Made by a program: the position numbers and the translations under genes. A stretch of DNA of 60,826 nt from a filamentous cyanobacterium CCP2 (GTDB lineage Bacteria > Cyanobacteriota > Cyanobacteriia > Elainellales > Elainellaceae): NCBI GenBank assembly GCA_003003615.1, contig PVWD01000007.1:1-60826 (forward strand), written 5' to 3'. The notes under the pieces are model-generated. The model saw nothing but the letters and a program-made list of their open reading frames with translations, did not search any database and was not told the origin of the DNA. Positions 43,080-60,826 of the stretch are shown here, piece after piece; the stretch's first letter is position 1, and the number at the start of each line of letters is the position of its first letter.

Positions 43080-43138
43080 TGTGAAGTGTCCATTAAAGAG
43101 CTATTTGTCGAATTTAAAGACTCAGTGACAATTTAAAA
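43080..43138 (+). mobile_element. Candidate left end of a Tn7-like (CAST V-K-like) transposon
   Basis: Starting at TGTGAAGTGTCC (43080) are three related motifs about 19 bp apart: GTGTCCATTAAAG (43087), TGTCGAATTTAAAG (43106) and GTGACAATTTAAA (43125). This resembles the TGT-terminus and multiple TGTCG/TGACA-containing TnsB-binding repeats at the left end of type V-K CRISPR-associated transposons. It is followed about 170 bp later by tnsB, the usual distance. No matching right end was found inside the window, so the boundary is a proposal. Confidence 0.5.
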
Positions 43139-43254
43139 CACTCACCTAGAGTGCCCACATAGTAAGAGTTTTAGGTTTTCCTGATGGGTTTTTATTCTTT
43201 TTATAGGCTTGAATAGTTATTTGCCTTTTTTCCTGGAACCCTTAAAAACGGTTT

Positions 43255-43302
43255 AAACTGATAATTGCCTTTTTTCGGTTATCCTCCGAAGGTTATCAGT
43301 TT
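43255..43302 (+). promoter_or_regulatory. Inverted repeat in the tnsB leader
   Basis: AAACTGATAA (43255-43264) and TTATCAGTTT (43293-43302) are perfect 10-bp arms ending 5 nt before the tnsB ATG, with an inner TTCGG...CCGAA stem. In RNA this would bury the ribosome-binding region; in DNA it could be an operator. TTGCCTTTTTTC also occurs twice (43221, 43265). Confidence 0.6.
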
Positions 43303-43307: not shown

Positions 43308-43868
43308 ATGGAAGATCTCAAACCCATATCTGCTGCTCAGTTGTCCACCGATTCCAGTGGAGTAACAGCCTTTGTGGATGAAGATCAGCAGCCTGCTTAT
43401 AAAATTCTGATCGAGCTTGTCGAGGATCTGGATAAGCGAAGAGAGGTAATGCGGAAGATCGAGGCGATCGAAGATATTACTCAAGCCTCTGACGATCTCA
43501 AGCGGGAGAAGATTCAGCTATGGGCAGATCGACTGGAGAAGAACCCTAGAACGATCACGCGATGGCTGGAGAAAGTTGAGAAAGAAGGATTGGCTTCGAT
43601 CGCTAGAGCTACCCGCTCCGATGCAGGACAAATCAAGGGTAATAAACGATGGAAGCACTCTGTTCAGTATTGGACTGAGTTTATTCTCAAGACCTATAAC
43701 GATGGCATCAAAGCTAAGTTGGGTATAACCCCCAACCTTGTGAACAATCAGGTCAAGAGCCATGCTGAATTAGAACTAAGGTTAAAACAGGGCGAGTACC
43801 CTTCACATCCGTTTGTGTACAAAATTCTAGAACCCCTCATCGAGATAAAAGCAGCGAAAGGTGCGTAA
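43308..43868 (+). CDS. tnsB: TnsB N-terminal part (DNA-binding helix-turn-helix domains)
   Basis: 186 residues corresponding to the N-terminal DNA-binding half of a TnsB/MuA-like transposase. Residues 55-105 contain a helix-turn-helix (LWADRLEKNPRTITRWLEKVEKEGLASIARATRSD) as in V-K TnsB, and residues 110-180 match the second DNA-binding domain up to the linker (HPFVYKILEPLIEIKAAKG). The frame then stops at 43866, and the catalytic part resumes one frame over with an 8-nt overlap. Either the protein is made as two chains, or by +1 frameshifting at GCG-AAA-GGT, or the gene is broken by a 1-nt indel. Confidence 0.85.
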   Translation: MEDLKPISAAQLSTDSSGVTAFVDEDQQPAYKILIELVEDLDKRREVMRKIEAIEDITQASDDLKREKIQLWADRLEKNPRTITRWLEKVEKEGLASIARATRSDAGQIKGNKRWKHSVQYWTEFILKTYNDGIKAKLGITPNLVNNQVKSHAELELRLKQGEYPSHPFVYKILEPLIEIKAAKGA

Positions 43869-45252
43869 TCCAGGGCAGGGACCTGGAATCATTGTCAAAG
43901 TTACAAGCGGGAAGAAAGGTGGCAAATCGGCTGAGGAGGATATTGAGGTCATCCGCAGCAATCAGGTTTGGCAAATTGATCACACTCGGTTGGATAACTT
44001 ACTTGCTGATGAGAAGGGCGATCTTGCTTGCTCTGTCTGGATTACTGCGGTGATTGATACATGGTCAGGCTGCGTGATGGGGTATCACCTCAGCTTTGGC
44101 TCTGCGGGATCTCACGAGGTTGCTCTGGCGCTACGCCACGCTATTTTACCGAAGCATTATGACCCTGAGTTTCAACTTAAGGAAGAGTGGGAGGTATGTG
44201 GTCTTCCTGAGTACATTGTCACCGATCGCGCCAAAGAGTTTAAGTCAGCACACCTGAAGCACATTGCATCAAATTTAGGTATCAAGTTGCGACTTCGTCT
44301 CTATACAGAACAAGGTGGAATCGTAGAGCGGTTATTTTTGGAGCTGAAAACCGAATTTGCTGCATTGATACTTGGCTTTAAAGGGGGGAGCCTGAAAGAG
44401 CGACCAGAAAATGCTGAGAAGTATGCCTGTGTTGTATTTGAGGACTATGACCGTAAGTTAGTACAGCATTTCGTAGACCACCACAACAAACATCTCTATC
44501 CGAGGGCTGAAAATCAAACGCGCTTAATGAGATGGAAAGCAGGTCTATTAGGTGGTCAGCCTAAAAGGCCTGCAAGTGAGCGAGAACTTGACCTGTGTTT
44601 AATGAAAACGACAACGCGCAATGTTGAAGAGCGGGGATGCATTAATTTTGAGAAGTTGGTCTATACAGCGAGTTTAAGTCGGGAAGAGGATGGGCATTGG
44701 CGCTATGACAAGAGGGCGAACTTCCTTAAAGACTATGAAGGCAAGGAAGTTTTAATTCGATACAACCCAACAAACATTGTTTATGTTCTCGTCTACACGG
44801 TTGAGGAGAATGGTCAGCCATCTGAATTCTTAGGCACAATTAGGGCTAGAGATTTAGAGGAGGAGCGTTTATCTCTGAAAGAATGGAAGGATCGCAAGGC
44901 TCAGATTCGTAGGGAGGGTAAGGGGATTGATCAGTCGTCTATCTTAGCTCAACAACGGAATTTATATGTGTCTTCAGTTGAAACAGCTAAAACATTAAAG
45001 GGACGGCGCAAGAAGGAGAATAACCGAATCACGAAAAGGTCTGAACATTCGGATAGAGTAGTGCAATTATTTCCTCCCAATATTTCTTCCGCCGATACGC
45101 TCCCAGATGCTATACCGGATGGCGAGGCTGCCCCTTCAACCGAAGCACCCTCAGAGGATTTGCAATCCACACCGAAACCACCTAAAATTCAGGCTAAACC
45201 TGCTTTGTATGTTGTTTCCGATTGGGATGAGTTTGTAGAGGACAGGTGGTGA
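43861..45252 (+). CDS. tnsB: TnsB C-terminal part (DDE integrase core)
   Basis: 463 residues holding the RNase-H-fold catalytic core. The DDE triad is intact: Asp40 (VWQIDHTRLD), Asp122 (IVTDRAKEF) and Glu156 (GGIVERLFLELK). A beta-barrel and a Lys/Arg-rich region follow, ending in the short acidic-aromatic tail DWDEFVEDRW, which parallels the TnsC-contacting C-terminal hook of V-K TnsB (DYEQLREEYGF in ShCAST). The start would be GTG 43861, overlapping the upstream stop, with poor ribosome site. It cuts and joins transposon 3' ends. tnsC starts 11 nt later. Confidence 0.9.
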   Translation: MRNPGQGPGIIVKVTSGKKGGKSAEEDIEVIRSNQVWQIDHTRLDNLLADEKGDLACSVWITAVIDTWSGCVMGYHLSFGSAGSHEVALALRHAILPKHYDPEFQLKEEWEVCGLPEYIVTDRAKEFKSAHLKHIASNLGIKLRLRLYTEQGGIVERLFLELKTEFAALILGFKGGSLKERPENAEKYACVVFEDYDRKLVQHFVDHHNKHLYPRAENQTRLMRWKAGLLGGQPKRPASERELDLCLMKTTTRNVEERGCINFEKLVYTASLSREEDGHWRYDKRANFLKDYEGKEVLIRYNPTNIVYVLVYTVEENGQPSEFLGTIRARDLEEERLSLKEWKDRKAQIRREGKGIDQSSILAQQRNLYVSSVETAKTLKGRRKKENNRITKRSEHSDRVVQLFPPNISSADTLPDAIPDGEAAPSTEAPSEDLQSTPKPPKIQAKPALYVVSDWDEFVEDRW

Positions 45253-45263
45253 GATAACCCAAA

Positions 45264-46229
45264 ATGAGCCAGTCAAACTTAGCAGTTCAGCCACCCGAGG
45301 AGCAACCTCAAGTTTCCCAAGCATCATCTGGAGCGTCACAGCCTAACCAAGCTCCTTCCAATCCTGCGCGAAAGGTTGGGGCGCAAAAGACCCGATCGCC
45401 CGAACAACAAGCAGAAATTGAGCGGATTGGTAGGATTAATCCGTATGTGGGGGTGCAGCGAGATGAGGATTTGTTCACTTGCTTCAATCATTGGAGCGAC
45501 TTGAAAATTTGTGCTCGTGTCCTCACGATCGATCGCTTGGGTTTGTCGAAAGCGATCGACCACTACACCAGACAAACGAGCAAGCGTCGAGGGGACTTGT
45601 TGCAAGTGCCTGCCCCAGTTGCTGCTATTGAAATGGAGCAACATGGTAGTGCGACAAATTTGTTTCTCTTAATTCTGGAATTTCTCTGTAACCCCCTGGA
45701 CTGTGGCTCTTTACGCGATTTACGATCGCGAACTTGGGGGACGCTCAAGGTTTACGGAGTCAAACTTTTGATTGTTAATTACGCGGAATTGTTATCGTTT
45801 GCTGCACTGAATGAGCTGGTGCGGACTTCTGAGAAACTGGGGATTTCTATTGTTCTGGCAGGTTCGCCTTATCTCAACGATTTGCTTGATCCTAACGGCA
45901 ATCGCAAGAAGAGATACGTCAATGTGTACAACACGTTTCGCAAGTATCATCAGTTCAATCTGCTTTCTGTGTCGGACACGGCAACTATTATTCAAGAGTG
46001 GGAGAGAGTAGGATTACGTTGGGCAAACCCACTGAATTTAACCACCGATAGTGCGATCGTCAAACTCTTACACGAGCGGTCACAAGGGCAGCTTCGCCCT
46101 CTTTACGAAAACCTGCGAGAAATTGCAGTTTGGAAATTAGAACATCCTGGGGCGCAAATCAACCCACAAAATATTGACATTGCCCTGGGGAATCAATATC
46201 AGCCTATCTCTAAGCTTAGACAGTTCTAA
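45264..46229 (+). CDS. tnsC: TnsC-like AAA+ regulator with degenerate Walker motifs
   Basis: A 321-residue protein collinear with V-K TnsC from about residue 50 on, after a Gln/Pro/Ser-rich extension. The Walker A region, GESRTGKT in ShCAST TnsC, reads TIDRLGLS (residues 88-95), so the ATP-binding Lys is Leu. Walker B, LIIDEAD, reads LIVNYAE (residues 169-175), so both acidic residues are gone. The rest (GISIVLAGSPYLNDLL; VNVYNTFRKYHQFNLLS; EGYIGR-equivalent QGQLRPLYENLREIAVWKL) is well kept. TnsC filaments need ATP to mark targets and recruit TnsB, so this copy should be unable to bind or hydrolyse ATP normally. Confidence 0.85.
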   Translation: MSQSNLAVQPPEEQPQVSQASSGASQPNQAPSNPARKVGAQKTRSPEQQAEIERIGRINPYVGVQRDEDLFTCFNHWSDLKICARVLTIDRLGLSKAIDHYTRQTSKRRGDLLQVPAPVAAIEMEQHGSATNLFLLILEFLCNPLDCGSLRDLRSRTWGTLKVYGVKLLIVNYAELLSFAALNELVRTSEKLGISIVLAGSPYLNDLLDPNGNRKKRYVNVYNTFRKYHQFNLLSVSDTATIIQEWERVGLRWANPLNLTTDSAIVKLLHERSQGQLRPLYENLREIAVWKLEHPGAQINPQNIDIALGNQYQPISKLRQF

Positions 46230-46286
46230 TGGGCTTGAGTAGGCTGGCTGAGTCGGTTTAGTCGTCTTCCTCATCTGGCAGAAGCG

Positions 46287-46802
46287 ATGGAGAATCAGGA
46301 ATCACAGCGTTCAATCCTTTATCTGCAACCCTACGACGATGAGAGTATCAGTCACTATCTTGGGCGTTGGTTTCATCAGGAAGTAGTGAATAGTGATTCA
46401 TACAGCCTGGGAAGAAAATTGAGGCTGGGGAAGACGCTATGGAGATGGGAAAATTTCTACTTCAACCCACCTCCAACTCGTGAAGAATTGCAGAAAATTG
46501 ATGAGTTGATGAGCTTGGGAATAGAAAGACTACTTCTGATGTTTCCATCTCAACACGAGCCAATTAAGCCTAAACCCATTCGGATCTGTGCAGCTTGCTA
46601 CGTTGAAGCACCTTACCATCACATGAGTTGGCAATACCAATCTACGGAGGGGTGTGAACGCCATCGGCTTCGCCTGCTTTCCAGATGCCCAGATCCCAAA
46701 TGCAGCAGACCTTTTCCCATTCCTTCTGCCTGGGCAACACCGGGAAGGTGTAAATGTGGAATGCCGTACACAACAATGGCACGGAAACAAAAGCCCTATT
46801 GA
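46287..46802 (+). CDS. tniQ: TniQ-family protein, short V-K CAST type
   Basis: A 171-residue TniQ, close in length and sequence plan to ShCAST TniQ (167 residues): LYLQPYDDESISHYLGRW at the start, RWENFYFNPPPTREEL, then CAACY...CERH and a second Cys set (CPDPKC, CKC) forming two zinc sites. The second zinc site has altered spacing relative to ShCAST. TniQ caps the TnsC filament and links it to the targeting module (Cas12k and tracrRNA in V-K). It lies 57 nt after tnsC. The end of the gene is followed by about 130 bp of non-coding DNA. Confidence 0.9.
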   Translation: MENQESQRSILYLQPYDDESISHYLGRWFHQEVVNSDSYSLGRKLRLGKTLWRWENFYFNPPPTREELQKIDELMSLGIERLLLMFPSQHEPIKPKPIRICAACYVEAPYHHMSWQYQSTEGCERHRLRLLSRCPDPKCSRPFPIPSAWATPGRCKCGMPYTTMARKQKPY

Positions 46803-46933
46803 ACTTCTCACATTGCGGCACAATACTCAATGGGTCACAGGTCAATAGAAATTTCTATGTGAAGTTTCCGAAATTGGAAATGGGTCAATGTAGGCTAAAG
46901 GAGAATTGCGCTTACATTCAGTCAATAACGCCA

Positions 46934-47323
46934 ATGACTCACCCTCCTTCCCAATCGATCGGTCTTGCTGAACTGATTCAGCAGGTCAAGAAAGAATTGC
47001 TCTCTACAGTGCCCGGTCAGAGTTCTGATGCCCCAATTTTGTTTGTGGAGTCTGTAGAGTTAGAGCTACAGGTGACGGTGAGCCGAGAAGGCAGCGGCGG
47101 GGTGAAAATTGATGTGCTTGCAGTCGGGGGTGGAGAGTTAGGGGGCACGCTCAAACGGGAAAATGTCCACACGGTCAAAGTTAGCCTATCTCCTCTGTTT
47201 GATAAGGAGCGTCTCATGGAGTTTTACCAGACCCTCCATTCTGACAAAGTGCCTACCACTGTGAAGCAAAGCCTAGAGGCACTGCTGAAGGGTGAAGAAG
47301 GAAATCTGTCTAATCAGTTTTAA
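46934..47323 (+). CDS. Trypsin-co-occurring domain (Trypco2-like) protein
   Basis: A 129-residue protein with the pattern of the trypsin-co-occurring domain 2: IGLAELIQQVKKELLST, then FVESVELELQVTVSREGSGGVKIDVLAVGGGE and VHTVKVSLSPL. These domains are small adaptor or sensor modules found with trypsin-like, caspase-like and NTPase components in bacterial conflict systems. ATG 46934 begins the conserved helix; longer in-frame starts run into tniQ. The CHAT gene starts 23 nt after its stop, so it opens the cargo operon. Confidence 0.75.
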   Translation: MTHPPSQSIGLAELIQQVKKELLSTVPGQSSDAPILFVESVELELQVTVSREGSGGVKIDVLAVGGGELGGTLKRENVHTVKVSLSPLFDKERLMEFYQTLHSDKVPTTVKQSLEALLKGEEGNLSNQF

Positions 47324-47346
47324 CTGCGATCGATTGAGGGGACAGC

Positions 47347-50082
47347 ATGGAGCTATTGGAGTTGACGCTTTCTCCAGTGAATGACCAACGCTTCTTGGCG
47401 AATGCCTCCCGTGTCCCGGATGGGGTTGGGGATGCCACGACAGAATGTGATTTGCCCTTCTGGGTAGGGAAGCAGGACTGGAGAAGAACGATCATCAAAA
47501 TCCTGGAGAGTAGCCAGGGATTTCGTTCTGAGAATTTTCCAGAAATGGAGGAGCAAGATTGGCTGGAGCAGGAGGGTCTGCTGCTTCCATCTCGACAGCA
47601 TTTTGATTCAGCTTATCTACGGCGGATTGGGCAAGCTCTCTATCAATCCCTCTTTCCACCCGATAGTCCCCTCAAGCAAGTTTTACAGCATTCTCTCCGT
47701 CTTACTGAGCAACATAACACTGACCTCCATTTGCGATTGAAATTTGCAGCGGATTCTGGGAAACGATCGCGTCTGGCAGATTATCCCTGGGAGTTGCTGC
47801 ACGATGGGCAACGGTTCCTGCTTCACCATCGAGTTAGGCTCTCTCGCTATATTGCCCATGAAGCTTCGCCACCCAAACTATCTGCTCAAGAGCAAATTCG
47901 GGTCTTGTTAATTTCTGCCAGACCCCAAGGGCTAGCTCAATTGACGCAGGCGGAACAGCAGGCGATTCAAGTTGGGTTAGAACGGGCGCAGGATGCTGGG
48001 TTGGTACAACTGCAAATCCTGCCGACTCCTGCCCGTAGAACCCTAAATCGTTATTTGACGGACTGTACATCTGAGCAATTGCCTCAGGTGTTGCACTTTG
48101 ATGGGCATGGGGTGTTTGGCAGACGCTGTGGGAATCCAGGGTGTTTGACAATGCATTCAGGGATTAAGGTGGAGTCCTGTCGTGTCTGTGGGCAACGATT
48201 ACCAGAGCCGCAGGGGTATCTGGCATTTGAAACCGAGGAGGGCAAGCCAGATTGGCAAAGTGCCACCCAAGTTGCTGCTCTCTTGCAGCCTTACCCGATC
48301 GCCCTGGTAGTGCTGAGTGCTTGTCAGTCGGGGATGGCGGTTGCAGGGGATTCAGTCTTCAATGGTATGGCACAGAACTTGATTGACCAGCGAATTCCGG
48401 CAGTGGTGGCGATGCAGTATTCTGTGCGGGCAGATGCAGCTTGTGATTTTGCCGAACAGTTTTACCGAGTGCTGGGGAAGAAGGAGGCGTTGCTGAAAGC
48501 GTTGAACCAAGGCATCCGGGAGATGGATGTGGAGGGAAATCAATGGTATCGCCCGGTGATTTACTTGCGTTGGCAGGATAATGAGGGAGGAAATCTGTTT
48601 GAGAGTAGATTGCCTCAGGAATCCTTGAGTAATCCCAATACTCAACCACAGCCTGACACCGAACCTCTCTCTCCTGAACCGCCTAAGTTGAGTCGGTTGC
48701 AACAACTAGAGTTAGTACGATTTCAGGATGACCTGGCTCGATGTGAGCGGGACTATAAGACAGTTGCCGACCAGTTGAAGCTGGAAGGGGATGGTGTACG
48801 GCAAAACCAACTCAAGGATCAGTTGAAAGTGTTGGGGCAGCAAATTGAGCAAATTGAACAGGAGATCCAAATCCGCGAAAGAGATATCCAACAAAGCAGT
48901 GCCCGGTTGCGTTTAGAGGAGCTGAAACGGATTTTGGATATCCACCTCAATCTATTCCCAGAGGTACTACGGGCTTGCCAGCAGCTATTTGCTATCCGCA
49001 AGTATTCACCCGGTCAGACTCTCCAGAATGCCCAAGAACTGATCGCAGAATTACTAAGGATTCCGCCAGGTCGATCGCAACCGTACGATGCCATTGAGCA
49101 GTTTGTGGCTTGCTTAGTCTCCAGTTCTCAAAATACGGCTCTTCTCACCGCGCTTCAGGGATGGGTCGAGCAATATGTTCAAGAAGGCTGGCAAGAACTC
49201 CTGGAGCGGGTCGAAGACTATCAAAAACAGACGGCTCAGGAGGCTCAACCTGTTGTTTTAGTAGCCATTAGCCGAAGTGATGAAGCTTCAACCCAGGAGC
49301 AGGAGGGCAATCGCTATCAGGTCAAGGCTTGGCGGATTCAGGATAGGGATCAGTACAAGCAACATCGGCAGGGCTATAGCCCGATCGAGATTCCAGGTTC
49401 GACTGGAGAAGAAACCTACACACTGGATGAACTAATTACAACCACACCTGCTCTCCTGATTCGCTTCCTTAGTGAAGGCAGTAATGAGTTTACCAACGAT
49501 CCAGAAATCCACATTTTTCTACCCTTAGAGTTGATGAATCAGGATGTGGATTGCTGGTTGCTCAACGACGGTTACGGCATGCCAAAGCTCCTGGGGCACG
49601 AGTACAAGGTGGTATTACGCTGTGCTGAACGGTTGAGCCGCAGCTATCGACAGCGACCTCGATGGATAAAAAAATGGCAACAACACGAATCCTTCCTTGA
49701 GAAAACAGCCTTTGAGTTTTTCACAGCAGGCGATGATAGCGATCTAGATGAACTGTCCTACACCCTGGATGAAATAGAAGAAACGATCGTTGGGTTAAAA
49801 GTGATGCGAGCACCCTGCCAAGTTGAACCAGATGGACTGTTTGGCGTTTTGCTCCAATCTGGGCTACCCCTGGCAGTCTGGGGACGGTGTGATTTACGGG
49901 AACCGACCAACGAAGCTGAATTAGATCGGATACTACAAGCTTGCTGTTTGGAACAGCTACCCAGTACGGTAAAACAAGAACGTCGCCAATCTCGAAAAGT
50001 CAAAGACAAAGATTGTCATATTGGACATCACCTTTCGTTATTGTGGGATGACCCCCACCTCGTTCCCCCCAAATTTGCTTAA
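47347..50082 (+). CDS. CHAT caspase-like protease fused to VMAP C-terminal domain
   Basis: A 911-residue protein. Residues 100-410 are a CHAT protease: His254 (LHFDGHG) and Cys326 (VLSACQSG) form the catalytic dyad. Between them is a zinc-ribbon-like insert (Cys261, Cys266, Cys278, Cys281). A heptad-rich coiled coil spans about residues 455-530, a helical module follows (530-620), and residues 640-911 match the VMAP C-terminal domain (ALLIRFLSEG...SGLPLAVWGRCDL...HLSLLWDDPHLVPP). In the vWA-MoxR-associated systems described by Kaur and colleagues, VMAP proteins link an effector to the MoxR/vWA pair. MoxR follows after 9 nt. Confidence 0.88.
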   Translation: MELLELTLSPVNDQRFLANASRVPDGVGDATTECDLPFWVGKQDWRRTIIKILESSQGFRSENFPEMEEQDWLEQEGLLLPSRQHFDSAYLRRIGQALYQSLFPPDSPLKQVLQHSLRLTEQHNTDLHLRLKFAADSGKRSRLADYPWELLHDGQRFLLHHRVRLSRYIAHEASPPKLSAQEQIRVLLISARPQGLAQLTQAEQQAIQVGLERAQDAGLVQLQILPTPARRTLNRYLTDCTSEQLPQVLHFDGHGVFGRRCGNPGCLTMHSGIKVESCRVCGQRLPEPQGYLAFETEEGKPDWQSATQVAALLQPYPIALVVLSACQSGMAVAGDSVFNGMAQNLIDQRIPAVVAMQYSVRADAACDFAEQFYRVLGKKEALLKALNQGIREMDVEGNQWYRPVIYLRWQDNEGGNLFESRLPQESLSNPNTQPQPDTEPLSPEPPKLSRLQQLELVRFQDDLARCERDYKTVADQLKLEGDGVRQNQLKDQLKVLGQQIEQIEQEIQIRERDIQQSSARLRLEELKRILDIHLNLFPEVLRACQQLFAIRKYSPGQTLQNAQELIAELLRIPPGRSQPYDAIEQFVACLVSSSQNTALLTALQGWVEQYVQEGWQELLERVEDYQKQTAQEAQPVVLVAISRSDEASTQEQEGNRYQVKAWRIQDRDQYKQHRQGYSPIEIPGSTGEETYTLDELITTTPALLIRFLSEGSNEFTNDPEIHIFLPLELMNQDVDCWLLNDGYGMPKLLGHEYKVVLRCAERLSRSYRQRPRWIKKWQQHESFLEKTAFEFFTAGDDSDLDELSYTLDEIEETIVGLKVMRAPCQVEPDGLFGVLLQSGLPLAVWGRCDLREPTNEAELDRILQACCLEQLPSTVKQERRQSRKVKDKDCHIGHHLSLLWDDPHLVPPKFA

Positions 50083-50091: not shown

Positions 50092-51156
50092 ATGAGCGAC
50101 CCAAACCAAGACTGGAAGATTTTTCGCGGTGATCATCGAGACCCTCACGATGGCATCGATCGCCTACCGAAGGCACCCAGTTGGCGACCATTTGGGACAG
50201 ATATTAGCCCCGGTGTGAGTCGGCGAAAGCGACGGGGAGAAACGTTTCAGGTACGTCCTGAAGAAGTGGAGATGGTGAATGCAGCCCTGTACTTGCGCCG
50301 ACCGCTACTGATTACGGGCAAACCGGGGACAGGTAAATCCTCTTTAGCCTATGCAGTGGCGCGAGAGCTTAATCTGGGTGAAGTGCTCTACTGGCCCATT
50401 ACAACCCGAACCACCCTCAAGGATGGGCTTTACAGCTACGATGCCATCGGACGATTGCAGGAAGTCAAGCAATCGGAGGCAAAGGGTGAACAGGTGGATG
50501 ACCCTCAGAAAATAGCCAACTACATTACCCTGGGACCCCTCGGTACAGCCCTGCTGCCCTCCAGTCGCCCCCGGATTCTCATCATCGACGAGATCGACAA
50601 AAGCGATATCGATTTGCCCAATGATCTGCTGACGATTTTTGAAGAAGGACGATTTGAAATTCCCGAACTTGCCCGCCTTGAGCCGGATGAAACCGAATCA
50701 GAAAAGCAGATTACAGTACGGGTTCGCACGGCATATACGGATGACGAAGAAATCACGAAAGCCGATAGAAAAGTGGTGATCCAGGGTGGGCGGATTACCT
50801 GTCAGGAGTTTCCCTTGGTGCTGTTGACCAGCAATGGTGAACGAGACTTTCCCCCGGCATTCCTGCGACGTTGCCTGCGACTGACGATGCGAGAACCCGA
50901 TCGCTCAGAATTGGAACGCATTATCCAGGCTCATTTGACAGATTGTGATGTAGCGGCAGAGGAAATTAGTCAGCTAATTGGCACATTCTTGGAGCGGCGC
51001 GATAAGAAGAAACAACAGTTGGCGACCGATCAACTGCTGAATGCCATTTTTATGGTGACTCGTGAGCGGAATTTTGTAGGCAATGAGAAGAAGAATTTAC
51101 AGGAGCGGCTGATAGCTGCATTGGATAGCTCTATGGAAGAACCACGGCGAAAATGA
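50092..51156 (+). CDS. MoxR-type AAA+ ATPase
   Basis: A 354-residue AAA+ ATPase: Walker A GKPGTGKSS (about residues 76-84), Walker B ILIIDEIDKSD and the sensor-1/arginine region LLTSNGERDFPPAFLRRC. It is of the kind found in VMAP ternary systems, where ATP-driven remodelling is thought to set the switch between the sensor and the CHAT effector. Its stop overlaps the next gene's ATG (ATGA at 51153-51156), so the two are translationally coupled. Confidence 0.92.
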   Translation: MSDPNQDWKIFRGDHRDPHDGIDRLPKAPSWRPFGTDISPGVSRRKRRGETFQVRPEEVEMVNAALYLRRPLLITGKPGTGKSSLAYAVARELNLGEVLYWPITTRTTLKDGLYSYDAIGRLQEVKQSEAKGEQVDDPQKIANYITLGPLGTALLPSSRPRILIIDEIDKSDIDLPNDLLTIFEEGRFEIPELARLEPDETESEKQITVRVRTAYTDDEEITKADRKVVIQGGRITCQEFPLVLLTSNGERDFPPAFLRRCLRLTMREPDRSELERIIQAHLTDCDVAAEEISQLIGTFLERRDKKKQQLATDQLLNAIFMVTRERNFVGNEKKNLQERLIAALDSSMEEPRRK

Positions 51157-54059: not shown

Positions 54060-54117
54060 CTCTTTTCACACTTACTTTTTAGCTCTCTGCCCTGTTTTCT
54101 CTACACTTTTTTGTACG

Positions 54118-54162
54118 GAGCGCGTTGGCAAAGCCTCTCCGTTAGGAGAATCTAAATTTTTA
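54118..54162 (+). repeat. Direct repeat after FGE genes, copy 1
   Basis: GAGCGCGTTGGCAAAGCC, then TCTCC-gtta-GGAGAATCTAAATTTTT. A second copy at 56403-56446 differs by a few bases. Each follows the stop of an FGE gene by a similar distance, with further similarity (TTTTC/CTTTA-rich) between stop and repeat, so the gene end and its flank appear duplicated. CTCC/GGAG forms a short hairpin. Confidence 0.75.
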
Positions 54163-54183
54163 GCCTTACATCGATTCAAACCT

Positions 54184-55515
54184 ATGGCGACTACCCAGGA
54201 TCAGCAGCCTAAATTCACATTACAGCGTCGTCGTCAGTCTGTTCAGTTTTTTGTTGAACAGCTAACCGACGACATTGGCATCGAGATGATGCTGATTCCA
54301 GCAGGCACATTTATGATGGGTTCACCCGAAGATGAGATCGATCGCTCCTCCAGTGAAAGCCCACAACATGAAGTCAGTGTCCCTACCTTTTTCATGGGCA
54401 AATATCCGATCACTCAGGCACAGTGGTCGTTTGTAGCAGAGTTACCGCAAGTCAACCGAGAGCTAAAACCAAATCCTTCTAGATTTAAAGGAGACAAACG
54501 TCCTGTAGAGCTAGTGTCCTGGTATGAGGCGGTGGAATTTTGCGATCGGCTCTCTGCTCACACGGGACGAGAATATCGCCTACCGAGCGAAGCGGAATGG
54601 GAATACGCCTGCCGAGCCGGAACGACAACTCCCTTCCATTTTGGCGAAACAATCACAACTGATTTAGCCAATTACGATGGCACTGATGCTCCTAATGGAG
54701 AATGGTCAAGTGGTTCCTATGGACGCGGACCTAAAGGGGAATATCGCGAAGAAACGACCCTTGTAGGACATTTTGGGATTGCCAATGCCTTTGGACTATG
54801 TGATATGCACGGAAACGTAATGGAGTGGTGTTTAGATCATTGGCACGACAATTATGAAGAGGCACCGACTGATAGCAGTGCTTGGTTAACTGAGGATGAA
54901 AGTGCAGGACGAGTGCTACGCGGCGGTTCCTGGACATTCACTCCCAACAATTGTCGTTCTGCCTATCGCGGCATCAATCCGCCTGACAACCACGACTCCC
55001 GATTTGGTTTTCGAGTGATATGTCGATCTTGGACAAAGAATCAGCCAACAACAGATGATTTCATTACTGAAAAAGGTATTAATTACACCACACTCCGAGA
55101 TTTATTATTAACAGACCAATGGAGGAAAGCAGATGAAGAAACCTGGAAAATTATTTTGCAAGTAACAGGACAGCAAGAAAGAGGGTATTTATACAGTAGT
55201 GACGTTGGCAGTATTCCTAGTGCTGATCTCTGCACGATCGACCGCCTATGGGTGAAATATAGTCAAGGTAAATTTGGTTTTAGTGTTCAGAAACAGATCT
55301 GGTATGAAGTTAGTCAGGATTGGGAAAGATTTACCGAACGAGTAGGATGGAGAGAAGCAAATGCTGGTTTCAAGAACTACGATGCATTGACTTTCAGCAT
55401 AAATGCTCCTGCGGGACACTTTCCTTTCCAATTTGGAACTCCTGATTACTGTTGGACTTGGCGAGTGGGCAGGGGAAATACGATGGACTATCTGCTCTTA
55501 AGACAAGATCTGTAG
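54184..55515 (+). CDS. FGE-sulfatase/C-type-lectin domain fused to GUN4
   Basis: A 443-residue protein. Residues 20-285 are an FGE-like lectin fold (LIPAGTFMMGSPEDEID; YRLPSEAEWEYACRAG; GLCDMHGNVMEWCLDHWHDNY; GGSWTF...GFRVICRS), with Phe at the first FGE active-site Cys. Residues 296-443 are a GUN4 domain (LRDLLLTDQWRKADEETWKIILQVTG; CTIDRLWVKYSQGKFGFSVQKQIWYEV; GHFPFQFG), the tetrapyrrole-binding module known from chlorophyll synthesis regulation. It is a cyanobacteria-specific combination here in a conflict operon. ATG 54184 is used; the longer frame runs into the previous gene. Confidence 0.88.
   Translation: MATTQDQQPKFTLQRRRQSVQFFVEQLTDDIGIEMMLIPAGTFMMGSPEDEIDRSSSESPQHEVSVPTFFMGKYPITQAQWSFVAELPQVNRELKPNPSRFKGDKRPVELVSWYEAVEFCDRLSAHTGREYRLPSEAEWEYACRAGTTTPFHFGETITTDLANYDGTDAPNGEWSSGSYGRGPKGEYREETTLVGHFGIANAFGLCDMHGNVMEWCLDHWHDNYEEAPTDSSAWLTEDESAGRVLRGGSWTFTPNNCRSAYRGINPPDNHDSRFGFRVICRSWTKNQPTTDDFITEKGINYTTLRDLLLTDQWRKADEETWKIILQVTGQQERGYLYSSDVGSIPSADLCTIDRLWVKYSQGKFGFSVQKQIWYEVSQDWERFTERVGWREANAGFKNYDALTFSINAPAGHFPFQFGTPDYCWTWRVGRGNTMDYLLLRQDL
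54920..55023 (+). other. Putative DGR variable region 2
   Basis: Equivalent segment in the FGE-GUN4 gene (GGC-GGT-TCC-TGG ... GGT-TTT-CGA). Variable codons are TTC ACT AAC AAT TAT GGC ATC AAT GAC AAC CAC GAC TCC plus ACA and CGA, still largely NNC/NNT. Unlike the other two it is not at the gene's 3' end, so active retrohoming here is less certain. Confidence 0.45.
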
Positions 55516-55529
55516 GTTTGAGGAACCAA

Positions 55530-56342
55530 ATGGCAGAACTGGTGATCCGTCGAGAGCGTAAGCAAGCCCGCTACTTCGTTGAGAAGCTGGGGGACACAGC
55601 CGGTTTGGACATGATTCTAGTCCCTGGTGGAACCTTCGTGATGGGTTCTCCCGATGACGAACCAGAACGCACTGATGTTGAAAGCCCACAGCACGAAGTA
55701 AATGTTCCCACCTTCTTCATGGGACGCTATCCGGTTACTCAAGCTCAATGGCGATTTGTAGCAGAGCTGCCCGAAGTCAACCGAGAACTAAATCTAGACC
55801 CTTCCCACTTCAAAGGAGACAAACGACCTGTAGAGCGGGTGACCTGGTACGATGCGGTGGAATTTTGCGATCGGCTCTCCGTCTACACCAAACGAGAATA
55901 TCACTTACCCACTGAAGCCGAGTGGGAATATGCCTGTCGGGCTGGAATCACCACTCCATTTCATTTTGGGGAAACAATTTCTTCTGAGTTGGTAAACTAT
56001 GCTGCTTCTGAAACCTATAACAATGGATCGAAGGGAGAGTATCGAAAAGAAACGACTCCTGTAGACCATTTCGGTATTGCTAATGCCTTTGGGTTATGCG
56101 ACATGCACGGGAATGTGTGGGAGTGGTGTTTAGACCATTGGCATGACAATTATGAGGGTGCGCCGATCGATGGGAGTGCTTGGTTAACTGACAATGAGGA
56201 TGCAAGTCGAGTAATACGCGGCGGTTCCTGGTACGACTTTCCCTGGGCTTGTCGGTCTGCCTATCGCTACTCCGGTTCGCCCGTCTCCCAGCACTACTTT
56301 ATTGGTTTTCGCGTTGTATGTGTTGCTCCGAGGACTCTGTAA
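55530..56342 (+). CDS. FGE-sulfatase/C-type-lectin domain protein
   Basis: A 270-residue stand-alone FGE-like domain, closely similar to the domains of the two preceding genes (LVPGGTFVMGSPDDEPER; YHLPTEAEWEYACRAG; GLCDMHGNVWEWCLDHWHDNY). It ends in GGSW...CRSAYR...GFRVVC. The first FGE Cys position is Asp, so oxidation of a client cysteine is not expected. ATG 55530 follows the GUN4 gene stop by 14 nt with GAGG between. It is probably a secreted-independent, cytosolic binding protein acting in the same system (inferred). Confidence 0.87.
   Translation: MAELVIRRERKQARYFVEKLGDTAGLDMILVPGGTFVMGSPDDEPERTDVESPQHEVNVPTFFMGRYPVTQAQWRFVAELPEVNRELNLDPSHFKGDKRPVERVTWYDAVEFCDRLSVYTKREYHLPTEAEWEYACRAGITTPFHFGETISSELVNYAASETYNNGSKGEYRKETTPVDHFGIANAFGLCDMHGNVWEWCLDHWHDNYEGAPIDGSAWLTDNEDASRVIRGGSWYDFPWACRSAYRYSGSPVSQHYFIGFRVVCVAPRTL
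56217..56321 (+). other. Putative DGR variable region 3
   Basis: 3' end of the last FGE gene. Variable codons include TAC GAC TTT GCT TAT TAC TCC GGT GTC TCC CAC TAC TTT ATT, 14 of about 16 being NNC/NNT, the pattern produced from AAC/AAT template codons. The flank (GCGTTGTATGTGTTG and a T/C-rich stretch after the stop) may hold the IMH element. Confidence 0.55.
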
Positions 56343-56796
56343 CCCTTTACCCTCTTGCTCTTTAGCCCTTTTCACTCTTTTCTTTACGCTTTCTTCCGCG
56401 CAGAGCGCGTTGGCAAAGCCTCTCCACAGGAGAATCAAAATTTTTGGCACTCTACCAACTTCGATCTGTCCCAATTGCACGCACATCTGCCTCAGTAAAA
56501 CAGCATTCTAAATCTGCATGCTTTTTCTCATCTGATAACGAGCTAAACAAAACCGCTCAATCTGCTCCCTCACCGTCTTCTTCCGGCGAATGAACTTATT
56601 GTTATTCTCAATCTAGTAGGGGTAGATTCCCCGCTGCTCTGCGGCGAAGAGGACAAACTGCAATCCGAAGCTTTAGGTTCGGCAGCAGATCCTATTTCAT
56701 ACCCCGTCCGCTTGCGGCGGGGTTCGTTGATTCCGCAACCCAAGCCAAATCTGCGTCGTTAAAGCGGTAGAAGATCGGAAAAAGTTTTTCTCTTTT
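56343..56796. other. Convergent intergenic stretch with repeat and hairpins
   Basis: About 450 bp between convergent genes. It holds the second copy of the post-FGE repeat (56403-56446) and two GC-rich hairpins: CGCTGC-TCT-GCGGCG (56632-56646) and ACCCCG-CCGC/GCGG-CGGGGT (56701-56723). Such hairpin pairs resemble ends of IS200/IS605-type elements, but no transposase gene is present. No DGR template repeat or reverse transcriptase is visible. Confidence 0.6.
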
Positions 56797-59700
56797 TTAC
56801 TTCACCAACCCAGCCAATCGCTCCAGCTTTTCTCGCCAATCCTCATCATGCCGCAGAACCACGATCGCATAATTGGCGTTATACCGCAGGTTATCTCGCT
56901 CCAGTCGATCGCGCTGCTGCTGGTCAGGATGATCATGGATAGAGCCATCGCAGAAGACGGCGACTTTAGCTGATTTGTAGAGGAAATCAGGTTTGGCATT
57001 GGCTTCCGGAATGAGTTCTTGGGCGGTGTCGGGTAGTTTCAAGCCATGCTGATACATCTCATCCAGAACCATCCGTTCAAATTCAGAGTTAGGGTCAGTC
57101 TGCGATCGTAATTGCTGATAATGGGCTTCCCGCGTTCCTCCTTGCATCTGGCGATCGATCCTGCTGGTTGTGAGTTGGTCTAACCAGCCATGAATCAAGT
57201 GACGATTCAGCAGGGGATGGTCAAACTGATTGCCATAGGACAGCAAGCATTCGTAGCAGGCTTGAGTACAGCTTTCCTTCTCTTCAACAAAGTGGCAAAT
57301 ATCCAGGGCAGCCTGGGCGATCGATTGGAAGGTATCTGGCTTTTCGAGCAACTGTGATAGCACTCCGGCTCCCCCTTCTGCGGCTTCCCAAAACAACAAG
57401 TGTTTACCCTGTCCCAATCGTTCTGAACAGAGTTCATTGTCTTCCAACTTATAAACCGCCTGAATCGCCCGTTCAAGGGCATACTGCAAGGTTGCCAAAA
57501 AAGCTTCTGTGTTCTCAGTTGGAACATTCACTGGCTCCATCACCAGAATATTGCAAGTATCTTTGACCAGCAAATGAACCTGACTGTGGTTCGTCGGTGC
57601 AGCGATCGTTGGTTCCTCACTGGTTTCGCCCCAGGTTCCGGTTTTGGTATCCAGCTTAAAACCAATTTCGTTATAGTTGCGCTTCAACCCTCGGTTGAGC
57701 CGCCAAACCTTTGCCGTGTCTCCGTAGGACAGTTTCAACAGCGTTGTCCCATCTGCGGCAGACACCGTCGCTACATCTTGCCGACCCGATTCATATCGGA
57801 AATGGGTCGTCAGGTTATAACCATACTTTAACCGTTCTTCTTCATCGCAGGTAATTCGTTCGCGGCGGCGGGTAATCATGGTGCCCATTTCTAAGACTCG
57901 ATTGAGTCGTGGCAGATTTCTTTGATCGCTAGAGGTAATCCGCGCACCACAGTTTTCGCAGGTATCTCTCGTTGCACTATCACCTTCGTGAAAATATCCA
58001 CATTGCGAGCATAATCCAACTCGTTGATATTCTCGTTCAATGCCCCCAGCCGGAATCCGAGTTTTGGCAATCTGAAACTTGTTCCCTTCGTAATAAACGA
58101 TATTACCAGGTGCAAACTCGCGCAGTGCCACAATACGAGAACGGGAAATGAACTCCCCTTCATCCCCTGCGGGAACGTATGCCCGAACTGGCAATCGGGG
58201 GAAGTTATAGCCCGGCAGGAAGCCTTCCGAAGCAAAGTAGCGGTAGGGGTAAAACTCAAATTCACTTTGGCTCTTACCGGACGTGACCTGCCCAATTAGC
58301 AAGTCAATTTGTCTGCGGGCTTCTCGTTCCTGGTTATCGGCGTTCTGGCGTTCCTCCTGCGTAGCGATTCCCCTGGTGGCACGATCGATGATCTGACGAG
58401 CATGGTTGAGTTGAGCCACGGCATCGCTGTAAAGCTCTCGCCATCGTTCACAGGCGCGATCGAACTCAAGGGGAGCATCTTCAATGCGTTGCTGTAACCA
58501 ATCCAGCGAGTACCAGGACATCCGGTTCAAGTCTGCCTGACAAAACGTATCAGCCAAAATAGACTGCGCTGCTTGCACACAGCGATTCAAGCGATCGGGT
58601 GGGAGATTGAGCTGGAGCTGCACACTTTCTTTGAGTGGGTAGCCTGCTTGCTCCAAGTCCAGCAATTGGCTCATGGAATCTCCCAGGTATAACCCGGTAT
58701 GCGCTAACCAGATGGAGTAGATGTGAGACTTGATTAAATCCTGGTTGCCCAGTTCCAACTTCGGGGGCACCACGACCCCTGCCACCATTTGGCTTTGACG
58801 ACGGAAGAAATACTGATCGTGCCCGCTGCCGACTGAGGCATAGGTAATGACAAGCGCACCTTGCCCACTGCGTCCTGCCCGCCCACTGCGTTGAGCATAA
58901 TTAGCAGGACTGGGGGGTACGTTTCGCAAATGCACCACGTTGAGATCCGAAATGTCGATCCCCAGTTCCATAGTGGGTGAGCAAAACAGAGCCGCTAATT
59001 CTCCCTTACGAAACAGATCTTCCCGTTCCTGCCGTTTGATCGTTTTGACCTGTCCCGTATGCTCTCGTCCTTCCATGCTGTGGGTTTGCTGGGCACTCCG
59101 CTCATAAAAGTCCTGGAAGAACAAATTGACGGAGGTGGGGGTTTCTTCGGCTCCCTCAAGGCGGCGGGCAGTTAGGACATCAGGGGCGATCGTGTTTGTT
59201 TTTTGGGAACGCCACTGAAGGGAATCAATCCGTAATTGGACTTCAGTTCCGTCTTTAATCAGATAACCGCTGTCACACAGGACGTTGATAAGTGCGGTGA
59301 TCAGCAGGGCATATTCTGATTCTGGAATAGATTCAACTAGCCAACTCCAGGCGCGAGGCGAGCGCAAAAACTGCCCAATCTTACTGCGGGAGGTGAGGCG
59401 GAGTTTGGAGCGGCTACGTTTACGCCCCGCCTGCTCACCGACGCTGGTGCTGGCCCATTTTGCTTCGTGCAGTCGCTCGTAGGCATCAAATGTCCAGGGA
59501 TCTTTGAGTGCCTGATTCACTTCCTTCTTCAGTTGCTCAATCCGATCGGGTTGCAGCAATCGAGCATCAATGACCAGTTCTCGCCGCAACAGATCCAGCA
59601 GTGTTTTTGCAGCCACTAATCGTTCGGATGGTGTGGCACGTAGTAAGAGGGGATGGGGATATTTCTGCCAGGGTTCATTTGCCTGACACACCTCATCCAG

Positions 59701-60826
59701 GTCAATGTATTCGATCGCCAGCAGTCCACATTGCTCCAGGTTGGGCTGCACAATCCGCCAGCCCCGGCGCAGGTCTTCGTAGAGACGATACTCAATCAGG
59801 TTTTGAAAGGCTTCCTGATTCCGCCGCTTCCCGACTCCATATTCCGCAACTTGGCGGGCATAGTCGGTTTGCTCTAGCTGCATTTGCTGACATACCTCAA
59901 CCGCCAGTTGAGCATGGGTGAGCGTATGATTCGCTTGCAACGCACTGTGGAGGGCAGACCGCAGAAAACTGGTTTGCACAAAGTCGTTGAAGTGCCCTGC
60001 CTGAAGCGAAGCATCCTGACGGTTATCGGTAAAGCTGAGGATTTTGGCAGCTTCCGATTGCTCACCTAACGCTGTTTTAAGACGACTGACGGTTGAGAGA
60101 CAAAGCAGGGTAGTGGCGGTGCTGCGTCCTTCACTACTGAGGCGAGACAGTTTAACAAACTCATTTTTCCGCGCATCATGCACCACTCCACAGTTGAGGC
60201 AGGTCATGAGCGGTTTTGCTGTAAACCAACCGCTTGTCCCTTCTAATAGGGAACTGGTCACCTTGCCGTTCGGCAGGACTTGCAGCCGTTGGGGAATGAA
60301 GCGGACATACTCCTTCTTCGGGACTTGCCCCTCCCGCTTCGTTTGCTTGAACCAGCTATCCGGAAGCCGCTCTTCATCGCCTTCACTCCACAGGTTCGGC
60401 TCATGCAACGTCAGGTAGCCTTCACGGATATCAGTGTTATCCGGATCAATGTCGATCGCCGTTGGTAGCAGGGGTTGTACCGTCTGATTTTCGGCATCGT
60501 AACGGATCACGTAATAGTCCTGCCCACAGTTGCGGCAGAAAACGAGCGGATACAGCAATCGGTCTTCTGTGGTGGCGTACTGCCCTTCCAGGGTGAGCAA
60601 CCGCTGCTTGTGGGGTTCAATCGTCGCATAAACACTGCCCCCTTGAGAGATGAACTGATGCAGCCGGAATGCCAATCCACCCGTTTTACTGCCCCAGAGG
60701 AACATTTGCTTGAGTACGCCCAGGCAGGTTTCCGTAGGCAGTTGGGTTTGTTCTGCCAGTTGTGCCGCCCCCGCTTCCAGGGTGATCGGTGTGCGACGAA
60801 CCAGGAGTGGGGAATCGGGAATGGGG
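56797..60826 (-). CDS. Superfamily 2 helicase with DUF1998 (MZB) domain and C-terminal nuclease, partial
   Basis: At least 1,342 residues; the 5' end is beyond the window, since the frame stays open upstream of the Met at 60705 (…SPLLVRRTPITLEAGAAQLAEQ). The helicase C-domain shows FCSPTMELGIDISDLNVVHL and motif VI NYAQRSGRAGRSGQ; the Walker A half is off-window. Zinc-binding Cys sets appear (FCRNCGQDY, TCLNCGVVH, CSQCGYF...CENCGAR), then the DUF1998 four-Cys block ESCTQACYECLLSYGNQ. The last 100 residues (KPDFLYKSAKVAVFCDGSIHD) look like a PD-(D/E)XK or Vsr/DUF559-type nuclease. DISARM and related anti-phage systems use such helicases. Confidence 0.87.
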   Translation of the reverse strand, partial: PIPDSPLLVRRTPITLEAGAAQLAEQTQLPTETCLGVLKQMFLWGSKTGGLAFRLHQFISQGGSVYATIEPHKQRLLTLEGQYATTEDRLLYPLVFCRNCGQDYYVIRYDAENQTVQPLLPTAIDIDPDNTDIREGYLTLHEPNLWSEGDEERLPDSWFKQTKREGQVPKKEYVRFIPQRLQVLPNGKVTSSLLEGTSGWFTAKPLMTCLNCGVVHDARKNEFVKLSRLSSEGRSTATTLLCLSTVSRLKTALGEQSEAAKILSFTDNRQDASLQAGHFNDFVQTSFLRSALHSALQANHTLTHAQLAVEVCQQMQLEQTDYARQVAEYGVGKRRNQEAFQNLIEYRLYEDLRRGWRIVQPNLEQCGLLAIEYIDLDEVCQANEPWQKYPHPLLLRATPSERLVAAKTLLDLLRRELVIDARLLQPDRIEQLKKEVNQALKDPWTFDAYERLHEAKWASTSVGEQAGRKRSRSKLRLTSRSKIGQFLRSPRAWSWLVESIPESEYALLITALINVLCDSGYLIKDGTEVQLRIDSLQWRSQKTNTIAPDVLTARRLEGAEETPTSVNLFFQDFYERSAQQTHSMEGREHTGQVKTIKRQEREDLFRKGELAALFCSPTMELGIDISDLNVVHLRNVPPSPANYAQRSGRAGRSGQGALVITYASVGSGHDQYFFRRQSQMVAGVVVPPKLELGNQDLIKSHIYSIWLAHTGLYLGDSMSQLLDLEQAGYPLKESVQLQLNLPPDRLNRCVQAAQSILADTFCQADLNRMSWYSLDWLQQRIEDAPLEFDRACERWRELYSDAVAQLNHARQIIDRATRGIATQEERQNADNQEREARRQIDLLIGQVTSGKSQSEFEFYPYRYFASEGFLPGYNFPRLPVRAYVPAGDEGEFISRSRIVALREFAPGNIVYYEGNKFQIAKTRIPAGGIEREYQRVGLCSQCGYFHEGDSATRDTCENCGARITSSDQRNLPRLNRVLEMGTMITRRRERITCDEEERLKYGYNLTTHFRYESGRQDVATVSAADGTTLLKLSYGDTAKVWRLNRGLKRNYNEIGFKLDTKTGTWGETSEEPTIAAPTNHSQVHLLVKDTCNILVMEPVNVPTENTEAFLATLQYALERAIQAVYKLEDNELCSERLGQGKHLLFWEAAEGGAGVLSQLLEKPDTFQSIAQAALDICHFVEEKESCTQACYECLLSYGNQFDHPLLNRHLIHGWLDQLTTSRIDRQMQGGTREAHYQQLRSQTDPNSEFERMVLDEMYQHGLKLPDTAQELIPEANAKPDFLYKSAKVAVFCDGSIHDHPDQQQRDRLERDNLRYNANYAIVVLRHDEDWREKLERLAGLVK

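What the first reader, a model, noticed from the sequence alone, without database searches (positions are those of the whole stretch)
43080..60826. VMAP-type conflict system in the cargo position of a Tn7-like (CAST V-K-like) element
Left-end-like repeats, tnsB, tnsC and a 171-residue tniQ are followed directly by a tight operon (Trypco2, CHAT-VMAP, MoxR, SAV_2336-FGE, FGE-GUN4, FGE), then a convergent helicase-nuclease. In type V-K transposons the order is left end, tnsB, tnsC, tniQ, cargo, cas12k, CRISPR, right end, so cas12k, an array and the right end could lie beyond 60.8 kb. A VMAP ternary system with lectin-like and GUN4 components riding an RNA-guided or related transposon would be a new pairing to my knowledge.
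Basis: partly seen in the sequence, partly recalled or inferred. Interest (0 to 1): 0.8.

Follow-up and report, generated by a model that had tools for sequence, protein, structure and literature searches.

The report
Guided transposon carrying hypervariable immune operon
In what looks like a cyanobacterium, a jumping element of the kind that is steered by a CRISPR guide RNA carries, as cargo, an operon of a predicted bacterial immune system whose sensor proteins bear the marks of targeted hypermutation; both parts are known kinds, but I found no earlier report of the two together.

Summary
The window is a whole contig (60,826 b) of an unnamed 6.95-Mb genome. A transposon left end starts at 43,087, followed by tnsB (split by a one-base frameshift), tnsC, a 171-aa tniQ, a six-gene VMAP ternary operon and a helicase cut by the contig end. 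The TnsB nests among cas12k-bearing type V-K elements; one clade member has cas12k, array and a perfect 5-bp duplication. The same 23-bp end occurs once more, inverted, on contig C316, beside an array whose delocalised spacer matches tRNA-Val (20 of 24; end 62 bp from the PAM) and next to a second V-K element. I take it as this element's right end, but the flanks share no duplication and no cas12k is assigned; DNA just beyond the window is unassembled. New here: the FGE (lectin-like) genes carry retroelement-type variable regions (best pair: 22 of 25 template-A columns differ versus 14 of 83 others). A Stenomitos homologue keeps template and RT, not found in this genome. The pairing looks rare: 0 of 24 scorable V-K cargoes had VMAP, MoxR or FGE genes.

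The parts
43087..43109 (+). left-end terminal inverted repeat TGTCCATTAAAGAGCTATTTGTC
   Evidence: only other place in the genome is C316:619-641 on the opposite strand; identical 23-mer at the left end of the G017 homologue
43087..43300 (+). left end with internal TnsB-type repeats (TTGAATAGTTATTTGCC at 43,209; TTAAACTGATAATTGCC at 43,253)
   Evidence: repeat pair found; the three sites have the same spacing (116 and 44) in the G017, G235 and G273 left ends
43308..45252 (+). tnsB, broken by a one-base frameshift near 43,850 (ORFs 43,308-43,868 and 43,861-45,252); DDE-type motifs in the second piece
   Evidence: 82% and 85% identity of the two pieces to the unbroken G017 homologue
45264..46229 (+). 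tnsC (321 aa, no canonical Walker A)
46287..46802 (+). tniQ (171 aa, V-K type)
   Evidence: PADLOC TniQ_0_V-K 1.4e-49; Pfam TniQ
46934..47323 (+). Trypco2 protein (start by homology; the longest ORF starts at 46,754)
   Evidence: Pfam PF19631 2.3e-18; L080 and G017 homologues
47347..50082 (+). CHAT - EAD9 - VMAP-M1 - VMAP-C protein (911 aa)
   Evidence: motifs HFDGHG and LSACQS (that these hold the CHAT His and Cys is recalled)
50092..51156 (+). MoxR-type AAA+ ATPase with the VMAP-specific motifs WKIFRG and PSWRPF
   Evidence: motif definition in PMC7159879 section 9
51153..54059 (+). SAV_2336 N-terminal (vWA-type component) - FGE fusion (968 aa)
   Evidence: NF041121 3.4e-124, 415 bits over cut-off 200; FGE
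53933..54055 (+). retroelement-type variable region 1
   Evidence: 76% to the Stenomitos template; A-column tests
54184..55515 (+). FGE-GUN4 protein (start by homology)
54918..55023 (+). variable region 2, followed by the GUN4 domain
   Evidence: 75% to the template
55530..56342 (+). FGE protein 3 (start by homology)
56216..56338 (+). variable region 3
   Evidence: 72% to the template
56797..60826 (-). DruE/DrmA-type helicase (Helicase_C, MZB), N-terminal part cut by the contig end
   Evidence: the plasmid homologue WP_015163171 is about 460 aa longer at the N-terminus

Best explanation
Window 43,087-60,826 is the left part of a type V-K CRISPR-associated transposon. SHOWN: the left end, tnsB (frameshifted), tnsC and tniQ of a TnsB lineage that nests among cas12k-bearing elements; directly behind them a complete VMAP ternary conflict operon (Trypco2, CHAT-VMAP, MoxR, SAV_2336-FGE, FGE-GUN4, FGE); and three FGE variable regions, of which at least two pairs differ with the adenine-specific signature of a diversity-generating retroelement. 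INFERRED: the element's array, delocalised tRNA-Val guide and right end are on contig C316:1-641, in tandem with a second V-K element, and its cas12k and perhaps the retroelement RT and template lie in the unassembled gap. Mechanism (inferred): Cas12k with the tRNA-Val guide placed the element 62 bp from the PAM; since tnsB is broken, the copy can now probably move only if TnsB is supplied in trans. The cargo protects the host: the variable lectin-like FGE domains bind an invader molecule, the MoxR ATPase and the SAV_2336/vWA-type component relay this to VMAP, and the CHAT protease is released to trigger cell death or dormancy. Trypco2 would be a regulator or substrate, and GUN4 may tie the response to tetrapyrrole (photosynthetic) state.
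For: PADLOC V-K models for all three transposition proteins. TnsB tree of 24 rows: the window groups with G017, G235, G273 and Trichormus (100/100) and then with C58 and Gloeothece, both cas12k-bearing (99/99), apart from Tn5053-type and TnsAB outgroups. G273, a clade member, has left end, tnsB-tnsC-tniQ, cas12k, array, right end, AATTA on both sides, then tRNA-Ala. Unique inverted 23-mer partner on C316 beside an array; its homing spacer matches tRNA-Val at 20 of 24 with PAM GGTA, and that end is 62 bp from the PAM when the second element is left out. An internal right-end repeat fits the clade's left-end motif (18 of 2000 shuffles reach the score). G017 shows the same order at tRNA-Val: window-like left end and tnsBC, then a C316-like element. 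Operon. Variable regions: W_gun versus W_fge3 differ at 22 of 25 template-A columns against 14 of 83 others (p 1e-10), W_sav versus W_fge3 at 17 of 25 against 18 of 83 (p 3e-5); upstream controls null, and 0 of 29 shifted templates reached 0.001.
Against: No cas12k can be assigned: the genome's four cas12k loci are on C454, C316 (its own element), C58 and C148 (remnants). The two flanks give TGAAG versus GTAGA, so no target-site duplication. Synteny of the left flank with tRNA-Val was not seen in 59 other genomes. G273's own right end does not stand out in the repeat test (231 of 500 shuffles). No retroelement template and no close RT in the genome; W_gun against the Stenomitos template is not significant (12 of 27 versus 26 of 96, p 0.07), and W_sav versus W_gun is weak (p 0.004, best shifted control 0.008). 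The right boundary of the cargo is not on this contig. The vWA fold was supported only by a low-confidence model (pLDDT 46.5).
Confidence: 0.72

Rival explanations
1. The transposition genes are a decayed, cas12k-less relict of a V-K element, and the conflict operon is an independent island acquired beside it, not mobilised cargo.
For: tnsB is frameshifted; no cas12k assigned; Stenomitos L080 carries the operon without tns genes, near a relaxase gene; the Trichormus plasmid clade member shows no annotated cas12k within 20 kb on either side, in an incomplete gene table.
Against: No second copy of the end between tniQ and the operon or anywhere else in the window; the operon starts 131 nt after tniQ; G017 and G023 carry Trypco2-CHAT genes between tniQ and cas12k of V-K elements.
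Confidence: 0.2
2. The right end on C316 belongs to another, lost copy of the same family at tRNA-Val; the window copy sits elsewhere and its right end is unassembled.
For: Different 5-bp flanks (TGAAG, GTAGA); no tRNA gene in the window; left-flank homologues are not near tRNA-Val in the listed rows of the relatives searched.
Against: Only one tnsB of this clade in the genome; the 23-mer has just these two places; G017 has the same tandem order at tRNA-Val.
Confidence: 0.25
3. The FGE variable-region differences are ordinary diversifying selection on lectin-like loops, not retroelement hypermutation.
For: No template or cognate RT in the assembled genome; W_sav versus W_gun is only weakly enriched (15 of 25 versus 23 of 83, p 0.004, best shifted control 0.008); W_gun against the template itself p 0.07.
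Against: Enrichment at adenine columns of an independent template (p 1e-10 and 3e-5 for the other two pairs), null in the upstream gene and in shifted templates; the Stenomitos homologue has RT, template and variable regions; Nostoc UHCC 0926 plasmid pn2 has the same order with an annotated avd gene and RT.
Confidence: 0.1

Closest known systems
Type V-K CAST (ShCAST, AcCAST and the cyanobacterial V-K elements reviewed in PMC11406308, passages read)
   Same: tnsB-tnsC-short tniQ order, no tnsA seen, TGT ends, TnsB clade; on C316 an array and delocalised spacer to a tRNA gene
   Different: cas12k not seen; tnsB frameshifted; TnsC without Walker A (also noted for some V-K TnsC in that review); VMAP ternary cargo
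VMAP ternary (vWA-MoxR subsystem 1) conflict systems, Kaur et al. 2020 (PMC7159879)
   Same: gene order VMAP, MoxR, vWA-type component; the MoxR motifs; Trypco2, FGE (their FGS) and GUN4 are all known parts, the last two of cyanobacterial versions; [quoted passage not shown]
   Different: lies behind V-K transposition genes; Trypco2 sits with a CHAT domain, whereas the paper ties Trypco to trypsin-like peptidases and its held main text does not use the word CHAT; GUN4 lies after the FGE variable region, whereas the paper says additional domains always lie N-terminal of FGS
Diversity-generating-retroelement ternary systems (PMC10907252; Nostoc sp. UHCC 0926 plasmid pn2)
   Same: VMAP-MoxR-SAV_2336/FGE-FGE; FGE variable regions
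   Different: pn2 has an annotated avd gene and RT behind the FGE genes and a trypsin-like VMAP; no RT was found here
Stenomitos frigidus ULC18 NZ_PVWK01000016.1 (L080)
   Same: closest operon found (VMAP 69% in its N-terminal and 43% in its C-terminal part, MoxR 74%, SAV_2336-FGE 58%)
   Different: no tns genes in the stretch held; relaxase nearby; RT and template present; CHAT and VMAP parts are two ORFs

Membership tests
Type V-K CAST | TnsB/TnsC/short TniQ of the V-K lineage | tested here: met
Type V-K CAST | no tnsA | tested here: met
   no TnsA match among the 11 ORFs scanned from 43,308 to 60,825; smaller ORFs were not scanned
Type V-K CAST | Cas12k encoded in the element | tested here: inconclusive
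   none in the window; the 4 loci in the genome belong elsewhere; the DNA beyond the contig end is absent from the assembly. Clade member G273 has cas12k, with an in-frame stop in that copy
Type V-K CAST | CRISPR array and delocalised att-targeting spacer | tested here: inconclusive
   present on C316 beside the matching end; the join to the window is not proven
Type V-K CAST | inverted ends with 5-bp duplication | tested here: inconclusive
   inverted ends found; the flanks TGAAG and GTAGA differ, but they lie on different contigs beside a second insertion
VMAP ternary system | VMAP-C protein | tested here: met
   PF20028 6.9e-41
VMAP ternary system | MoxR with WxhapG and PsWRxa motifs | tested here: met
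   WKIFRG at residue 8 and PSWRPF at residue 29; definition read
VMAP ternary system | order VMAP, MoxR, vWA component | tested here: met
   (with SAV_2336 taken as the vWA component)
VMAP ternary system | vWA fold of the third component | tested here: inconclusive
   SAV_2336_NTERM family met; no Pfam vWA hit at E 0.01; model of low confidence, its best PDB hits include several vWA domains but none at E 0.001 or below
Diversity-generating retroelement | variable regions that differ at template adenines | tested here: met
   (template taken from L080; strong for two of three pairs)
Diversity-generating retroelement | template repeat and cognate RT | tested here: not met
   not found in the window or the assembled genome; therefore not filed as a complete retroelement

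The most novel reading that the evidence does not exclude
An RNA-guided transposon mobilises a self-diversifying immune receptor system: the missing middle of the element holds the template, RT and cas12k, so that one element combines guided insertion at tRNA-Val, tandem stacking with other V-K elements, and continuing hypermutation of its defence sensors.
Probability: 0.22. Interest if true: 0.8.

Novelty: new variant of a known kind. Interest (0 to 1): 0.58.

Why it matters
It joins two lines of work: what V-K CASTs carry in nature, and how hypervariable ternary conflict systems spread between cyanobacteria. If correct, a guided element that inserts at a conserved tRNA gene is a vehicle for hypermutated immune sensors. 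A clade relative with unbroken transposition genes (G235) gives a testable system.

Tried and rejected
Pairing the window with the orphan cas12k on C454: rejected, because its right end and the left end of C135 share another terminal sequence, so I take those two as halves of a third element. Finding the contig that follows the window by end overlap (only partial matches of 32 bases or less) and by the helicase N-terminus: nothing; the only hit was a 29% match on C527. Showing the empty site by synteny in relatives: of 60 genomes (the own one included) 39 matched the left flank, mostly a small stretch near query 95-272, and none of the listed rows puts it beside tRNA-Val (the list was cut). 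A retroelement in the G017 cargo: rejected, its RT matches retron-type models (below their cut-offs) and no repeat pair was found. C171 as template: it lies in another FGE gene. G235's iSTAND-MoxR-vWA cluster as certain cargo: not settled, no right end or cas12k before its contig end. Viral contigs (2 scans, close relatives only) and phages (1 search): no relative of VMAP or TniQ in the scans; one 28% match to the CHAT part in a faecal phage record. A structure model of the SAV_2336 region: too poor to decide.
Full report
What the window is. [quoted passage not shown]

Observation. The left end starts at 43,087 with TGTCCATTAAAGAGCTATTTGTC. The transposition genes follow as tnsB (two ORFs), tnsC and tniQ (171 aa), and all hit the PADLOC V-K models. 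In G017 and G235 tnsB is one ORF of 658 aa; relative to these the window frame shifts by one base near 43,850. Whether this is real or a sequencing error cannot be told here. The last ORF is a helicase without a detected nuclease domain. The eight plasmid homologues listed are 62-67% identical, and the Chroococcidiopsis one has about 460 more N-terminal residues, so the gene probably continues beyond the contig.

Type of transposon. In a tree of 24 TnsB proteins (midpoint root) the window's second piece groups with G017, then G235, G273 and Trichormus plasmid A (100/100 for the five), then with C58 and Gloeothece, both beside cas12k (99/99); Tn5053-type and TnsAB proteins fall outside. Two rows have long branches (C135 and one outgroup). 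G273 carries the set: left end at about 991, tnsB-tnsC-tniQ, cas12k at about 25.8-27.6 kb (with one in-frame stop), array, right end at 28,712, AATTA on both sides, then tRNA-Ala. So the lineage is a cas12k lineage, although this copy's cas12k was not seen.

The other end. The 23-mer has exactly two places in the genome at up to two mismatches: the window, and C316:619-641 in opposite orientation. On C316 it follows a CRISPR array (three repeats at 109, 182 and 255) and a delocalised spacer that matches tRNA-Val at 20 of 24 positions with PAM GGTA; the end lies 62 bp from the PAM once the second element is left out. The V-K PAM form (NGTN) and the usual 60-66 bp spacing are recalled, not from a call. 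Directly next to it, 11 bp away, begins a second V-K element with its own array and tRNA-Val spacer (18 of 24, 56 bp) and a perfect TCCAT duplication. The best internal repeat of the C316 end fits the motif built from the window clade's left ends (18 of 2000 shuffles reach the score); four other right ends do not stand out (100, 320, 220 and 231 of 500). G273's own right end is one of those four, so this test is only supportive. In G017, another genus of the same family, a window-like left end with tnsB, tnsC and a cut tniQ is followed by a C316-like element that ends at tRNA-Val: the same tandem order. Against the pairing: the flanks TGAAG and GTAGA differ. I rate it about 0.7.

Missing cas12k. 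The genome's cas12k loci are C454 (its right end resembles the left end of C135, so I take these as halves of a third element), C316 (second element, N-terminally incomplete), C58 (a complete element at tRNA-Ala) and C148 (remnants). The last 200 bases of the window have only partial matches of 32 bases or less elsewhere, and the helicase N-terminus is not in the assembly apart from one 29% match. So the absence of cas12k carries little weight.

The operon. By the definition read in PMC7159879 (section 9, part 1; passages), a VMAP ternary system has VMAP, MoxR and a vWA component in that order, with two MoxR motifs. All were found: VMAP-C 6.9e-41, WKIFRG and PSWRPF, and the SAV_2336 N-terminal family at 3.4e-124. 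That SAV_2336 equals the vWA component is inferred from its position and from plasmid neighbours; the fold itself was not confirmed. The motifs HFDGHG and LSACQS of the CHAT domain are present.

Variable regions. In Stenomitos L080 the homologous operon has an RT gene (its best NCBIfam model is the group II maturase at 128 bits, far under that model's cut-off of 300), a repeat at 19,373-19,495 that I take as the template, and three FGE variable regions that differ from it mostly at adenines (11 of 26 versus 2 of 92; 13 of 27 versus 2 of 96; 14 of 27 versus 1 of 96). The three window FGE genes have the homologous regions. Measured against that template itself, the window regions give p 0.001 (SAV-FGE), 0.07 (FGE-GUN4) and 3e-7 (FGE3). 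Window pairs differ at adenine columns in 22 of 25, 17 of 25 and 15 of 25, against 14, 18 and 23 of 83 other columns (p 1e-10, 3e-5, 0.004). In the upstream part of the same genes no enrichment appears (nine tests, lowest p 0.34), and none of 29 shifted templates reached 0.001 for any pair, though for the weakest pair the best shifted value was 0.008. So the sensors were most likely diversified by a retroelement at some time. No template or close RT is in the assembled genome (best RT match 31%). Kaur et al. report such links for about 80% of cyanobacterial and gammaproteobacterial VMAP systems, so this part is a known kind.

How unusual is the pairing. Of 388 genomes of the class (the own one included), 93 have cas12k at E 1e-20 or better. 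I took up to 20 kb upstream of 40 of the listed cas12k hits; tniQ was found on the right strand in 24 of 40, and only these were scored for cargo. One of 24 (G023) has CHAT and Trypco2 with a retron-type RT, the same set as in G017; one has a weak 31% helicase match and one a GmrSD match; 0 of 24 have VMAP, MoxR, SAV_2336, FGE, GUN4 or the Stenomitos RT (tblastn, E 1e-5). Cargo beyond 20 kb was not seen. G235, a window-clade element with unbroken tnsB-tnsC-tniQ, has an iSTAND-MoxR-vWA-WD40-caspase cluster 15-22 kb behind tniQ, but its right boundary is not on the contig. A relative of the VMAP protein was found once in the 84,980 species genomes, with patterns that reach close relatives only.

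Literature. No held paper has both VMAP and Cas12k, or both 'ternary conflict system' and 'Tn7-like'. Two hold both the retroelement and CAST terms (listing only; a gut-engineering review and a meeting report). The Tn7 cargo survey PMC8649781 has no VMAP, ternary, NACHT, FGE or MoxR in its main text (passages seen, supplements not). PMC10910872 reports vWA-MoxR-VMAP genes beside type III CRISPR loci, which is a different link (passages). PMC10907252 (passages) proposes diversified targets as antigen sensors in ternary systems, and says that most retroelements of multicellular cyanobacteria in its clade 5E seem to fit this, though only a subset has a conserved VMAP domain. Most subscription papers were not searchable.

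Mechanism. I favour the sensor model of PMC10907252: FGE lectin domains sense, MoxR and the vWA-type component relay, VMAP's N-terminal effector (here CHAT) acts. This is inference from anatomy. As summarised in PMC10907252, Kaur et al. propose instead that VMAP senses and, through MoxR, cleaves the vWA protein to free its effector domains; the sequence alone does not decide between them.

Noticed in passing
L008 (C58), 903-18,202: A complete V-K element in the same genome at tRNA-Ala, with NACHT, NB-ARC-TPR and GmrSD cargo.
   Followed up: partly
L009 (C135, from about 8,250) and L028 (C454, to about 4,387): Probably two halves of another V-K element: similar ends (GTTCACGAAAAATGGCGCG, one mismatch), cas12k and array next to tRNA-Cys.
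   Followed up: partly
L030 (C148), contig 30,146-31,160: cas12k remnants with stops and end-like TGTC repeats beside tRNA-Thr: a decayed V-K element.
   Followed up: no
L111/L112 (G017) and L177 (G023): V-K elements with Trypco2, CHAT (with TPR in G017) and a retron-type RT as cargo; the two RTs are 95% alike.
   Followed up: partly
L113/L128 (G235:C82): Behind unbroken window-clade transposition genes: a DUF499, DUF1156-methyltransferase and SNF2 island, then iSTAND, MoxR, vWA, WD40 and caspase genes.
   Followed up: partly
window 56,621-56,732 and C316 10,119-10,230: A repeat of about 112 bp, 97% identical, after the last FGE gene and between array and homing spacer of the second element.
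   Followed up: no
window 45,264-46,229: TnsC lacks a GxxxxGK[ST] Walker A motif, as do the homologues of G017, G235, G273 and C58 (5 of these 5), while C316 and C135 keep it.
   Followed up: partly
window 37,758-40,055: A NACHT-NCH2 protein 3 kb outside the left end, another defence-type gene.
   Followed up: no
window 42,339-42,520: A small gene that looks CsbD-like (name recalled, no family search run) with an early in-frame stop in the reading from 42,339; similar stretches in most of the 39 of 60 related genomes (the own one included) that matched the left flank.
   Followed up: no
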